Origin: Ignavibacteria bacterium
Lineage (GTDB): Bacteria > Bacteroidota > Ignavibacteria > Ch128b
Length of the DNA: 64,000 nucleotides
Assembly: GCA_013177855.1 (NCBI GenBank)
Contig: JABLYA010000001.1
Span: 729,231-793,230 of the forward strand
Reading direction: 5' to 3'
The first letter of the stretch is position 1; each line of letters begins with the position of its first letter. This document shows, piece after piece, positions 34,734 through 39,417 of this stretch. Position numbers and translations under genes: made by a program. The notes beneath the pieces are model-generated. The model did no database searches, was not told the DNA's origin, and saw only the letters and a list, made by a program, of their open reading frames with translations.

Positions 34734-36272
34734 ATGAATGTAGATAAAATTTTAATTATAGATTTCGGCTCTCAATATACTCAGTTAATTCTGAGAAGAG
34801 TTAGAGAGAACAAAGTTTTCGCAATTCTAAAATCGAACGAAATCTCAGTGTCAGAAATTCTTGCTGAGAATCCAAAAGGAATAATCCTGTCAGGTGGACC
34901 CTCATCCGTTTATGATATAAATGCACCTCAAATTACACCCGATATCTTGAAATTAAATATTCCAATTCTTGGGATATGTTATGGCTTTCAACTAATCTCA
35001 AAATTATCAGGCGGAATTGTAGAAAGATCTGAAAAAAGAGAATTTGGTTTAGCTAAAATAAATATTAAAAATAGAAATCAGTTATTTGATGGTTTACCTG
35101 AAAGTTTTAATGTTTGGATGAGTCATTCAGATAAAGTAATTCAACTGCCCCCAAATTTTATCACCCTTGCTTCAACAATTAATACTGAATATGCTGCGGC
35201 TTGTAATCCTGATCAAAAAGTTTATGGTGTCCAATTTCACCCTGAAGTATTTCACACTGAATTTGGAAATGAAATAATTAAAAATTTCCTATTCAAAATT
35301 TGCGATTGTCAACCTAACTGGCAGATGAAAAATTTTGTTCAAGAAAAACTTAAAGAGATAAAAGAAAAAGCAAATGATAATTTGGTTGTCTGTGCTTTAA
35401 GCGGTGGAGTTGATTCGACAGTTGCTGCTGTTTTGGTTCACAAAGCTATTGGAAATAAGCTTCATTGCATTCATGTTGATACTGGATTGATGAGAAAAAA
35501 TGAAAGCGAAAATATAATCAATTTCTTTACTCAGAATTTTAAATTGAACTTGCATTTCATCGAAGCATCCAAAATTTTTCTGGAGAGATTGAAAGGTGTA
35601 ATTGATCCCGAAGAGAAAAGAAAAATTATCGGTAAAACTTTTATCGAAATCTTTGAAAATGAGATCAAAAAAATTGGGGAAGTGAAATTTTTAGTTCAGG
35701 GTACTTTATATCCCGATGTGGTCGAGTCAGGTGCATTTTCAAAACATTCAAGCGTAATTAAAACACATCATAATGTTGGTGGACTCCCAGAGAATTTAAA
35801 ATTTGATTTAATAGAACCACTGAGGGAGTTGTTCAAGGATGAAGTAAGAGAACTCGGTAAAGAATTACAAATTCCAGAAGAATTTTTAAAGCGTCATCCG
35901 TTTCCTGGTCCTGGTCTTGCAGTAAGAATCATCGGAGAAGTCAATTACGAAAATTTGCAATTACTTCGTGAAGCAGATTCAATTTTTATAGAAGAATTAA
36001 AAAAGCATAATCTTTATGACCGCGTCTGGCAAGCTTTCGCTGTTCTTTTGCCAGTCAAGAGTGTCGGAGTTATGGGAGACGAAAGAAGTTACGGAAATAC
36101 AATTGTCTTAAGAGCCGTCACAAGTGTAGATGGAATGACAGCTGATTGGGCAAAATTAGATTACGACTTTTTGAATCTTGTTTCTAACAGAATCATTAAC
36201 GAAATTAAAGGTGTTAATAGAGTTGTTTATGACATTACTTCAAAACCTCCAGCAACTATTGAATGGGAATAA
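34734..36272 (+). CDS. guaA: GMP synthase (glutamine-hydrolysing)
   Basis: GuaA converts XMP to GMP with glutamine and ATP. The 512 residues contain a class I amidotransferase domain (GICYGFQ with Cys82; VQFHPEVFHTE), an ATP-pyrophosphatase domain (PP-loop SGGVDSTVAA) and the C-terminal dimerisation domain (KRHPFPGPGLAVRI, ending TSKPPATIEWE). All catalytic motifs are intact. No promoter element is clear between the preceding terminator and the start. The end overlaps the next gene. Confidence 0.97.
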   Translation: MNVDKILIIDFGSQYTQLILRRVRENKVFAILKSNEISVSEILAENPKGIILSGGPSSVYDINAPQITPDILKLNIPILGICYGFQLISKLSGGIVERSEKREFGLAKINIKNRNQLFDGLPESFNVWMSHSDKVIQLPPNFITLASTINTEYAAACNPDQKVYGVQFHPEVFHTEFGNEIIKNFLFKICDCQPNWQMKNFVQEKLKEIKEKANDNLVVCALSGGVDSTVAAVLVHKAIGNKLHCIHVDTGLMRKNESENIINFFTQNFKLNLHFIEASKIFLERLKGVIDPEEKRKIIGKTFIEIFENEIKKIGEVKFLVQGTLYPDVVESGAFSKHSSVIKTHHNVGGLPENLKFDLIEPLRELFKDEVRELGKELQIPEEFLKRHPFPGPGLAVRIIGEVNYENLQLLREADSIFIEELKKHNLYDRVWQAFAVLLPVKSVGVMGDERSYGNTIVLRAVTSVDGMTADWAKLDYDFLNLVSNRIINEIKGVNRVVYDITSKPPATIEWE

Positions 36273-38124
36273 ATTAATACTGTTCTTTTCCATTCTTATT
36301 TTCCAACAAATTTTTGCTCAACAATCTGATTTCGAAAAAGGAATAAATTATTTCAACGAAGGGAAATACGCTGAAGCTATAAAATTACTCGAAAAATTCG
36401 TAATCAAAGAAAATGATCATTCTGAAACAGCAAATCTGATTTTAGTTTTAAGTTTTTTCAAATTGAATAACTTTGAAAAAGCTTCAATCCTTACCCAAAG
36501 ATTTATTACAAATTACCCTGCTTCTAAATCATTACCTGTAATTTTAGAGACACAATTAGCAATTGCTATAAAAGAAAAGAACTTCTCAGAAATTGAATCT
36601 GCTCTTCTAAAACTTGATAAATTTAATCTCAGCAAAGACCAGCTTGATGAATTCTATGGCGTCTTTACCCAATTACTTACCGTACTCAATCAAAATCAAA
36701 TGGAATATCTTGAGAATAATTTAAGAAATCCTCTCTTGAAATTTGCTTATCATAAAGCTTTGCTTGTTAAATCTATAAATGAACTGAATCCAAGCTCGAT
36801 TAAAAAACATTACAGCTCATTAATCCAGACTGGATTACATTCTGACTTGCTTACGATTAGGAAAATTGGAGTTTTAATTCCAGCCTCACAAAAAACAGCA
36901 GCGACTGAAAAAAGTATAATCGATGGTCTCAAGTTAGCGGTTCATAAATTTAATAACGAGGAAGAAAACAAAATCGAAATTAAAATCTACAAAGGTGACG
37001 AAAAGTTTTTAGAGAAAGCTCTTATCGAACTGGCAAAAGACCCTGAAGTTTTATGTGTAATTGGTCCGCTTTATTCGAGTCAGTTTAAAAATATTGCGAT
37101 CCTTGCTGATAAATTGAAAATTCCGCTAATAAGTCCAACAGCAACAGCAGCAGATATCTCAATAAAATCCAAATTTATTTTTCAATTTAATCCAACTCTG
37201 GATGTTCGCGGTTCAGCAATGGCAAAATTTGGAATTGAAAAATTAAATTCATCACGAATTGGAATTTTAAGCTGCGATAATTCGACATATAAACCAATTG
37301 TAAATGAAATCAAGAAAAAATTGAAATCTTCGAAAGCTGAGATTCTAATTGATTTAAACTGGAATGAAAATAAAAAATCATTACCAGCAAAAATTAAAGA
37401 AATTAGAAAAGCTGCTGTCAATCGTGATCTCGTCTTAAGATTTAATCAACTTATGGATTTTGAAACCGAACAAAAATTAATTGCACTTGGACTTACCCAT
37501 GAAATAATTGACTCACTAAAAAACATCGAAGCTGAAGTCAGTATCTTTGAAATTTTTGGAAAAGATGCAGAAAAAGTTTGTAAGACAAACAAACTATCAT
37601 ATTACAAAAGAAGTCAATCAATAATTGACGATTTAAACATACCTGTCTATTCTTTAGATGCATTGTTAATTACAATTTCAAATCCAGACTTAATTCCAGA
37701 AATTACAAACGAACTTCAAAGACAAAATATCATCACACAAATTATTGGTAATGATCTCTGGAATTCTTTAGATGACTTATTAAGAGGCTATCCATCAACA
37801 GATGGAGTATTCTTTACATCAGATTATTTCGTAGATCAGGAGTCAAAAGAAATAAATGACCTGATATTTGAAACTCAAAGTCTAAAGATTTCTCAACCCA
37901 ACAGAAACTTTTTTTATGGTTTCGAAACTATGAATAAAATTCTTCACAATTGGGATTCTAATATCAACCGAGAAAATTTTTACGATTATCTGATTGGTGA
38001 CAGAGATTATGAAGGATTTAGTTCAGATATAATTTTAAATCAAAATGGAGTGAATTGCTCTGTTTTTATTCTACAATATAAAAATCGAAAAATCAGAAAG
38101 ATTGACAGAATAATTTCAAATTAA
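36229..38124 (+). CDS. TPR plus periplasmic-binding-like protein (LpoA-like architecture)
   Basis: An exported protein of about 631 residues. After a signal peptide (cleavage near IFAQQ) come TPR-like helices (FEKGINYFNEGKYAEAIKLL, about 30-200) and then a type I periplasmic-binding fold (about 220-520: KIGVLIPASQKTAATEKSII, VIGPLYSSQFKN, PLISPTATA). The same order occurs in LpoA, the activator of penicillin-binding protein 1A, and in amino-acid-binding proteins; ligand binding or PBP activation are both possible. All candidate starts lie within the end of guaA: ATG 36229, or TTG 36259, which gives a more compact signal peptide. No good ribosome-binding site decides between them. Confidence 0.7.
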   Translation: MTLLQNLQQLLNGNKLILFFSILIFQQIFAQQSDFEKGINYFNEGKYAEAIKLLEKFVIKENDHSETANLILVLSFFKLNNFEKASILTQRFITNYPASKSLPVILETQLAIAIKEKNFSEIESALLKLDKFNLSKDQLDEFYGVFTQLLTVLNQNQMEYLENNLRNPLLKFAYHKALLVKSINELNPSSIKKHYSSLIQTGLHSDLLTIRKIGVLIPASQKTAATEKSIIDGLKLAVHKFNNEEENKIEIKIYKGDEKFLEKALIELAKDPEVLCVIGPLYSSQFKNIAILADKLKIPLISPTATAADISIKSKFIFQFNPTLDVRGSAMAKFGIEKLNSSRIGILSCDNSTYKPIVNEIKKKLKSSKAEILIDLNWNENKKSLPAKIKEIRKAAVNRDLVLRFNQLMDFETEQKLIALGLTHEIIDSLKNIEAEVSIFEIFGKDAEKVCKTNKLSYYKRSQSIIDDLNIPVYSLDALLITISNPDLIPEITNELQRQNIITQIIGNDLWNSLDDLLRGYPSTDGVFFTSDYFVDQESKEINDLIFETQSLKISQPNRNFFYGFETMNKILHNWDSNINRENFYDYLIGDRDYEGFSSDIILNQNGVNCSVFILQYKNRKIRKIDRIISN

Positions 38125-38128
38125 TTAA

Positions 38129-38142
38129 AGGAGGGCGCTATT
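38129..38142 (+). promoter_or_regulatory. Strong ribosome-binding site before an ATT start codon
   Basis: AGGAGG (38129-38134), then GCGCT, then ATT (38140-38142). The five-base spacing is ideal. The frame contains no ATG, GTG or TTG between the preceding in-frame stop (TAA at 38122) and the conserved RadC N-terminus, so ATT is the apparent initiation codon of radC. Confidence 0.6.
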
Positions 38143-38832
38143 AGAGTCAAAGATTTACCCATCGACGATAGGCCAAGAGAAAAATTAGAACTCAAAGGTC
38201 CAGGAGCATTGAGCGATGCTGAATTGATGGCTATAATTTTAAGGACTGGTAAGAAAAACAAATCGGCAATTGAAATAGCAAAAGAACTCCTGAGAAAATT
38301 TGGCAATTTGAAAGAACTTGCAAAAAAAGACTTTCGAGAAATCTTAAATGAATTTAAAGGTGAAGGAATTGGTAAAACAAAGGCGATAACTCTTCTCGCT
38401 GCAATTGAATTAGGAAAACGAAGCACTCAACTTGATTTCAAAAACGAGGAAGTTCAAGTCCGTGAGCCAAGAGTAATTTTTGAAATTATGAATCCTATAC
38501 TCTCCCATTTGAATGTTGAAGAGTTTCATATAGTCATCTTAAATCGGAAAAATGTCGTGCAAAGTCATCAGCTTGTCACCCGAGGAATTCTTGATTCGAG
38601 TTTGGTCTCTCCACGAGAAGTTTTCAAGATTGCAATTGATCATAGAGCTTCCAGTATAATTCTGGTTCATAATCATCCGAGCGGCAACCTCGAACCAAGC
38701 AAAGAAGATATTAAAGTAACTGAACAACTTTATCAGGCTGGGAAATTACTCGAAATCCCGGTACTGGATCACATTATTATCGCTAATAACTCATACACAA
38801 GTTTTCTTGAACGAAATTTAGTTTTCAAATGA
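38140..38832 (+). CDS. radC: RadC/JAB-domain protein (apparent ATT start)
   Basis: RadC-family proteins have an N-terminal helix-hairpin-helix part and a C-terminal JAB/MPN metalloprotease-like domain. Here RVKDLPIDDRPREKL begins the normal family N-terminus, GEGIGKTKAITLLAAIELGK is the helix-hairpin-helix, and HNHPSGNLEPSKED (from residue 177) is the JAMM metal motif. The expected family start is a methionine exactly where ATT stands, behind an excellent AGGAGG. An in-frame TTG at 38209 would remove the conserved first 23 residues. Total 230 residues, the normal length. The original role in DNA repair is disputed; the cellular substrate is unknown. Confidence 0.85.
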   Translation: MRVKDLPIDDRPREKLELKGPGALSDAELMAIILRTGKKNKSAIEIAKELLRKFGNLKELAKKDFREILNEFKGEGIGKTKAITLLAAIELGKRSTQLDFKNEEVQVREPRVIFEIMNPILSHLNVEEFHIVILNRKNVVQSHQLVTRGILDSSLVSPREVFKIAIDHRASSIILVHNHPSGNLEPSKEDIKVTEQLYQAGKLLEIPVLDHIIIANNSYTSFLERNLVFK

Positions 38833-39107
38833 AAAATTATTTCAGTCCCGCTCAATTCTTTCTAAATGTAAAACTTCTTATCACAGTTTTTTGGTTAATA
38901 TTTTTCTCTGGATGTTCATTCTATGCCTCCGATGAGGAGATAAAAAATCTGGAAAATTTCAAAAAAGAAGTATTCACACTCGAAGAAGAAGTCAAAAATT
39001 TGAAGTTACGGCAGTTAGAATTGTTTAAGGAGAAATCCGAACTGACAAAAAAACTCAATGAATGTCAAAAATTAAGAGATTCACTGGCAAATGCAGGTAA
39101 AAATTAG
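38829..39107 (+). CDS. Small coiled-coil lipoprotein
   Basis: A 92-residue protein with a hydrophobic N-terminal segment ending in a lipobox-like FFSGCS, followed by a continuous charged helix (about 38-85) with heptad-like spacing. This is consistent with a membrane-anchored coiled coil. No family is recognised. The start overlaps the radC stop by ATGA and the end overlaps the next small lipoprotein gene. Confidence 0.6.
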   Translation: MKNYFSPAQFFLNVKLLITVFWLIFFSGCSFYASDEEIKNLENFKKEVFTLEEEVKNLKLRQLELFKEKSELTKKLNECQKLRDSLANAGKN

Positions 39108-39417
39108 AAACAGGAACAAATCAAGCCAATCTTTGATTAAAACTTGTGGAATTTTCTTTTTATTCATCCTTTTTTTGACTATAAGCGGCTGTTCAAAATC
39201 TGAAAGATTATCTAAAAAAGACTGGTTTTATTTGATGGAAGATTTAAGATTACGAAAAAACAACCTTGAACTTGAAAAAAGTTATCTGAAAGAAGTATTA
39301 AAAGATTCTTTGTTAGTTGACTCGCTTAGAATTGAACTTAAAAATTGTAATGACGAAATCGAAAAGTTCAAAGAATTTGATTCAAGTCAGGTAGGAAAAG
39401 GATTTTTCATTGACTGA
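39091..39417 (+). CDS. Small lipoprotein of unknown function
   Basis: A 108-residue protein with a basic start, a hydrophobic stretch (GIFFLFILFLTI) and the lipobox ISGC, followed by a helical charged region (LRLRKNNLELEKSYLKEVLK). It overlaps the preceding lipoprotein gene by 17 bases in another frame, which suggests coupled translation of two related envelope proteins. No homologous family recognised. Confidence 0.55.
   Translation: MQVKIRNRNKSSQSLIKTCGIFFLFILFLTISGCSKSERLSKKDWFYLMEDLRLRKNNLELEKSYLKEVLKDSLLVDSLRIELKNCNDEIEKFKEFDSSQVGKGFFID

What the first reader, a model, noticed from the sequence alone, without database searches (positions are those of the whole stretch)
38129..38832. radC appears to start with AUU
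A near-perfect AGGAGG lies five bases before ATT, and ATT stands exactly where family members have their initiator Met. The frame has no ATG, GTG or TTG until deep inside the conserved region. AUU starts are known for E. coli infC and pcnB and are sensitive to IF3, so radC expression could respond to initiation fidelity.
Basis: partly seen in the sequence, partly recalled or inferred. Interest (0 to 1): 0.55.

Follow-up and report, generated by a model that had tools for sequence, protein, structure and literature searches.

The report
radC gene starting with codon AUU
In this bacterium the gene radC appears to be read from a weak AUU start codon instead of AUG, and many of its relatives do the same or similar, which suggests that the output of this gene is held low at the first step of protein synthesis.

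Summary
radC (38140-38829, stop 38830-38832) has AAGGAGG at 38128-38134, five bases before ATT 38140, and no ATG, GTG or TTG in frame until TTG 38209. It is not a sequencing error: 6 of 6 held genomes of the family have ATT as the start, five at the same codon and one a codon earlier. In four families of the class, 31 of 87 radC loci examined were called non-canonical (23 ATT, 5 CTG, 3 ATC), 53 canonical, 3 unclear. Of 28 loci without any canonical codon in the open frame, 20 have ATT at Shine-Dalgarno spacing, 3.1 expected. In 30 genomes with such radC starts, guaA has a canonical start in 30 of 30 and infC in 0 of 30. A scan of 613 predicted genes found no other clear case, but it caught only 3 of 6 known radC genes. 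Best reading: a real, weak AUU start driven by a strong Shine-Dalgarno sequence, probably sensitive to IF3. IF3 control is inferred. New member of a known kind (infC, pcnB, cvfC1, ccpN, sigR).

The parts
38122..38124 (+). TAA stop of the upstream gene, in the same frame as radC, 15 nt before ATT
38128..38134 (+). Shine-Dalgarno sequence AAGGAGG, 5 nt before ATT
38140..38142 (+). ATT, proposed start codon of radC
38140..38832 (+). radC coding sequence from ATT (230 codons and stop TGA)
38209..38211 (+). First in-frame canonical codon (TTG); rival start, judged unlikely
36178..38124 (+). Upstream open frame (as listed, from TTG; its true start was not studied), possible source of coupled ribosomes
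34734..36272 (+). guaA, used as control gene for start codon usage

Best explanation
RadC synthesis starts at AUU 38140. A strong Shine-Dalgarno sequence 5 nt upstream, possibly helped by ribosomes ending the upstream gene 15 nt before, places the 30S subunit on AUU. Initiator tRNA pairs with two of the three bases, so IF3 should reject many of these complexes and little RadC is made. Shown by comparison: the position of the start, the lack of alternatives in the window, recurrence of AUU (and CUG, AUC) in this gene in three families, and that a neighbouring gene (guaA) in the same genomes keeps canonical starts. Inferred: low yield, IF3 sensitivity, coupling, and that a low or fidelity-tuned RadC level is what selection keeps.
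For: ATT in 6 of 6 held same-family genomes. 31 of 87 loci in f1, f10, f22 and f26 called non-canonical; 23 ATT in 16 genera. ATT at offset 0 in 7, -1 in 14, -2 in 2 loci, and 4-10 nt from the Shine-Dalgarno match in the 22 scored. 20 of 28 against 3.1 expected. Shine-Dalgarno duplex stronger before non-canonical than canonical radC (medians -8.4 and -5.8 kcal/mol, P 0.001, relatedness ignored). In 30 genomes guaA canonical 30 of 30, infC 0 of 30. Precedents: S. aureus infC AUA, cvfC1 AUU and ccpN AUA with extended Shine-Dalgarno sequences and about 10% of AUG yield in poor medium, ccpN up to 30% in rich medium, cvfC1 unaffected by medium (PMC13009471, section 10); IF3 represses the GTC start of Streptomyces sigR (PMC5472188, passages).
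Against: No ribosome profiling, peptide or reporter data. 53 of 87 loci in the same four families were called canonical, so AUU is not needed for RadC function in this group; the label changes at least 19 times on a quick tree (shuffles: mean 26.3, lowest 22 of 200), which would also fit weak constraint on a little-expressed gene. L002, L003 and L007 do have in-frame TTG codons upstream of ATT, which I set aside because they lie in or before the Shine-Dalgarno stretch. Non-canonical calls required a Shine-Dalgarno match, which favours the comparison of strengths. Distance to the upstream gene does not differ significantly (medians 12 and 17.5 nt, P 0.10). The gene scan missed 3 of 6 known radC genes, so other AUU genes may exist.
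Confidence: 0.77

Rival explanations
1. Translation starts at the internal TTG 38209 and the AUU region is not translated.
For: It is the first canonical codon and an AGGAG lies just before it, though at a very short spacing (sequence).
Against: It would remove 21 residues of the UPF0758_N domain. Codons 2-23 are conserved as protein within the genus. In the family the first canonical codon after ATT lies 15 to 56 codons in, at differing places.
Confidence: 0.05
2. AUU is used but is neutral: radC needs so little protein that AUG decays freely, with no regulation.
For: 53 of 87 loci keep canonical starts and the label switches often.
Against: ATA, a single transition from ATG, was not called in any of the 87 loci although ATT was in 23; infC in the same genomes has mostly ATC or ATA; Shine-Dalgarno sequences are stronger where the start is non-canonical; ATT is kept in 6 of 6 genomes of f1.
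Confidence: 0.3
3. radC is made as a fusion by read-through of the in-frame TAA 38122-38124 of the upstream gene, without its own start.
For: In the window the two frames are the same.
Against: In L002 and L003 the stop of the upstream gene is in another frame than radC (sequence read by eye), and the Shine-Dalgarno sequence before ATT would be idle.
Confidence: 0.02
4. Sequencing or assembly error: the true codon is ATG.
For: All genomes used are assemblies, many of them metagenomic; no reads were seen.
Against: ATT recurs in separate assemblies of three genera in the family and 16 genera in all.
Confidence: 0.01

Closest known systems
infC (IF3), start AUU in E. coli, AUA in S. aureus, autoregulated
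   Same: Non-canonical start behind a Shine-Dalgarno sequence; in 30 genomes with non-canonical radC, infC also has no canonical codon in the open frame
   Different: infC encodes the discriminating factor, closing a feedback loop; RadC is not known to act in initiation. In those 30 genomes infC has ATC in 21, ATA in 5, ATT in 2 and is unclear in 2, while radC has mostly ATT
E. coli pcnB, AUU start that limits expression (Binns and Masters 2002; seen only as an entry in the reference list of PMC13009471)
   Same: A gene other than an initiation factor, read from AUU
   Different: Another gene and phylum; not examined here
S. aureus cvfC1 (AUU) and ccpN (AUA) (PMC13009471, section 10 read)
   Same: Conserved non-canonical start with a strong Shine-Dalgarno sequence
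   Different: Shown there by ribosome profiling and reporters; radC here rests on comparison alone
Streptomyces sigR, GTC start repressed by IF3 (PMC5472188, passages read)
   Same: A gene other than infC with a start outside ATG, GTG, TTG
   Different: IF3 effect was measured there; codon, gene and phylum differ

Membership tests
RadC / UPF0758 family | Match to curated RadC models above cut-off | tested here: met
   NF000642 232.4 bits (cut-off 180), TIGR00608 201.5 (133.85), PF04002 141.8 (22.1), PF20582 88.0 (27.1)
RadC / UPF0758 family | JAMM-type metal site, H-x-H ... D (motif recalled) | tested here: met
   HNHPSGNLEPSKED in the translation, read by eye; the Glu was not assigned
Genes with a conserved non-canonical start and strong Shine-Dalgarno sequence | No usable ATG, GTG or TTG at the conserved N-terminus | tested here: met
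Genes with a conserved non-canonical start and strong Shine-Dalgarno sequence | Strong Shine-Dalgarno sequence at proper spacing | tested here: met
   AAGGAGG, 5 nt
Genes with a conserved non-canonical start and strong Shine-Dalgarno sequence | Non-canonical start kept in relatives | tested here: met
   6 of 6 in f1; only partly beyond it: 12 of 43 in f10, 13 of 34 in f22, 0 of 4 in f26
Genes with a conserved non-canonical start and strong Shine-Dalgarno sequence | Gene-specific and not a habit of the whole genome | tested here: inconclusive
   guaA canonical in 30 of 30; no other clear case in 613 scanned genes, but the scan caught only 3 of 6 known radC genes
IF3-regulated genes | Expression moves with IF3 level or fidelity mutants | not testable with these tools
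   needs reporters in a cell
IF3-regulated genes | Lower yield than with AUG | not testable with these tools
   needs reporters in a cell

The most novel reading that the evidence does not exclude
In this class radC and infC form a small initiation-fidelity regulon: when IF3 activity falls or initiation becomes lax, RadC rises. RadC, whose function is unknown, would then belong to a process tied to the state of the ribosome or of translation. The re-appearance of AUU at shifted positions would be selection for the weak codon itself.
Probability: 0.2. Interest if true: 0.75.

Novelty: new member of a known kind. Interest (0 to 1): 0.55.

Why it matters
Few bacterial genes besides infC are known to start with AUU. 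Here one gene does so in many genera of one class while a neighbouring gene in the same genomes does not, so start codon choice can be studied as an evolving regulatory trait. Gene callers limited to ATG, GTG and TTG would be expected to shorten or miscall radC in such genomes. It also gives a first handle, translational control, on a widespread protein of unknown function.

Tried and rejected
Rejected readings. Read-through fusion with the upstream gene: frames differ in relatives. Internal TTG: domain limits and conservation. Relaxed start use in the whole genome: guaA is canonical in 30 of 30 genomes (28 ATG, 1 TTG, 1 GTG), and a coding-signal scan of 304 kb of G000 (206 genes), 400 kb of G164 (286) and 152 kb of G001-G004 (121) flagged 8, 7 and 1 genes. 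Besides radC in G000, G164 and G004 and infC in G000 these were, in G000: three genes with an ATG and no well-placed alternative, L201 with a good ATG, a short weak frame in L193, and the lipoprotein described under noticed items; in G164: one that looks like prfB with its frameshift (by eye, not tested) and five others left unresolved, of which L264 has ATT codons behind AAGGA. The scan missed radC of G001, G002 and G003, 3 of the 6 radC genes in the scanned stretches, so its silence is weak evidence.

Weak points of the counts. Any in-frame ATG upstream was counted as canonical, so the canonical class may be too large. L005 was reset by hand from ATC to the ATT one codon earlier; L070, L110 and L141 were set aside as unclear. 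The 87 loci are those that searches listed and that I fetched, not all members of the four families. Outside them 71 loci were looked at (163 less 87, and less 5 second loci of the same genomes): 68 ATG, 2 GTG, 1 called ATC (L244, which has a GTG just upstream); for 62 of 71 the nearest ATG is within 25 codons, 6 have it farther, 3 have none; N-terminal extensions make these starts uncertain. L006 has an indel, so its counts for codons 24-200 are out of register and were not used. The tree is of the quick kind with many weak forks and cannot tell gain from loss. The genome pattern search gave 1 hit, radC itself, and its reversed control 2; it carries no weight.

Literature. Paper searches. None of the titles or abstract starts listed reports a radC AUU start; the library holds open-licence papers only. 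One paper wanted for the yields of all 64 codons was not held.

Full report
What is there. On the + strand the radC frame is closed upstream by TAA 38122-38124, followed by TTA AAG GAG GGC GCT and then ATT 38140. AAGGAGG (38128-38134) lies 5 nt before ATT. The next canonical codon is TTG 38209. From ATT the protein has 230 residues and matches RadC models above their cut-offs, with the N-terminal domain from residue 3.

Is it real. The window lies in G000. The six held genomes of the family all have ATT as the start: five at the window's codon and G005 (L005) one codon earlier, where ATT and ATC stand in a row. Within the genus codons 2-23 change mostly without changing the protein (9 synonymous to 3 non-synonymous, 8 to 4 and 10 to 3 in the three pairs); against L004 this is not so (4 to 7, 5 to 8, 4 to 8). 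In the window no codon but ATT fits. In L002 and L003 (and L007 of another family) TTG codons stand upstream in frame, but within or before the Shine-Dalgarno stretch, so I take ATT there too.

How far it reaches. Searches of 61 genomes (own and relatives; 48 with a match) and of 391 genomes of the class (318 with a match) gave the places; I took start regions from loci of these calls and, and a phylum sample. In four families 87 loci were called (rechecked): f1, 6 ATT of 6; f10, 6 ATT, 5 CTG, 1 ATC, 30 canonical, 1 unclear of 43; f22, 11 ATT, 2 ATC, 19 canonical, 2 unclear of 34; f26, 4 canonical of 4. ATT occurs in 16 genera. It stands at the window's codon in 7 loci, one codon earlier in 14 and two earlier in 2, and in the 22 loci scored 4-10 nt from the Shine-Dalgarno match. 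Of the 28 loci without any canonical codon in the open frame, 20 have ATT at such spacing, 3.1 expected from local base composition (P about 4e-14, relatedness ignored); of 69 loci with an ATG start 4 have such an ATT within 20 codons upstream. On a quick tree of 99 RadC proteins the canonical/non-canonical label (96 rows) changes at least 19 times; 200 shuffles gave a mean of 26.3 and a lowest value of 22. The trait is thus partly inherited and often switched.

Control genes. I searched 30 of the 31 genomes with non-canonical radC (G276 was left out). guaA has an in-frame canonical start in 30 of 30 (28 ATG, 1 TTG, 1 GTG). infC has none in 30 of 30: ATC at Shine-Dalgarno spacing in 21, ATA in 5 (five of the six f1 genomes), ATT in 2 and unclear in 2. 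In a wider set 25 of 30 infC loci showed no canonical codon in the stretch inspected; the other 5 had one within the 45 codons shown. So the class keeps the usual non-canonical infC start, and radC is a second gene of that sort, with another preferred codon. A scan for further cases found none that is clear among 613 predicted genes, but it caught only 3 of 6 radC genes in its own material, so I do not claim that radC and infC are the only ones.

How it probably works. The Shine-Dalgarno duplex is stronger before ATT starts (median -9.8 kcal/mol, 23 loci) than before ATG starts (-5.3, 43 loci). With a window that does not depend on the called start the difference between non-canonical and canonical radC stays (medians -8.4 and -5.8, P 0.001, relatedness ignored). 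The upstream gene ends a median 12 nt before non-canonical and 17.5 nt before canonical starts (31 and 50 loci, P 0.10). This fits initiation driven by the Shine-Dalgarno sequence, perhaps helped by ribosomes that end the upstream gene, on a codon that pairs imperfectly with initiator tRNA. From precedent, such starts give about a tenth of the AUG yield in S. aureus in poor medium, with a rise in rich medium for ccpN but not for cvfC1 (PMC13009471, section 10); IF3 represses the GTC start of sigR (PMC5472188, passages); and extra IF3 lowers re-initiation in E. coli (PMC2268962, abstract). That radC responds to IF3 is inference.

What stays open. Whether low RadC is selected, or AUG is merely dispensable, cannot be settled by sequence. 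Against neglect: ATT was called 23 times and ATA, one transition from ATG, never in the 87 loci; infC in the same genomes prefers other codons; Shine-Dalgarno sequences are strong. For neglect: 53 of 87 loci have canonical starts and switching is frequent. RadC's role is unknown: E. coli radC mutants have normal sensitivity to DNA damage (PMC11981726, passages), and YicR/RadC is called a putative JAMM enzyme (PMC4725251, passages).

Place among the known. Non-canonical starts with strong Shine-Dalgarno sequences are a known kind (infC, pcnB, cvfC1, ccpN, sigR). radC in this class is, as far as the paper searches named under Tried and rejected show, a new member with broad comparative support.

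Noticed in passing
L190:7232-7636 (G000 C1 about 107232-107636); also L361, L362, L363, L366: Small lipoprotein without an in-frame start at its N-terminus. In the three same-genus copies an ATG one base out of frame reads ATG GGG TAA (or ATG GTG GGG TGA), a GGGG run beside a stop, as if a -1 frameshift right after initiation, or a minimal leader frame, fed the gene; G004 has ATG GGG CTA ATT TAA. Copies of G003 and G005 have an in-frame ATG.
   Followed up: partly
L278, L280, L281, L289: radC of some Clostridia (relatives of G503) shows no canonical codon near its N-terminus and has ATA there; others in that set use TTG or ATG. Shine-Dalgarno support is weak.
   Followed up: partly
L152-L156, L171-L179, L338-L360: The infC start codon differs by lineage in this class: ATA in five of six f1 genomes, mostly ATC in the f10 and f22 genomes searched, and in five f2 loci an ACG behind a GGAGG-like stretch with no canonical codon.
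   Followed up: partly
window 34734-38832: guaA lies upstream of radC: one open frame stands between them in the window, and the two are adjacent in at least G023, G058, G065 and G186.
   Followed up: no
window 38829-39417: radC's stop overlaps the ATG of a small downstream open frame, followed by another overlapping one; both look like small lipoproteins by eye.
   Followed up: no
G000:C9:226-735: A second infC-like match on another contig of the assembly (E 6e-49), perhaps contamination or a second copy.
   Followed up: no
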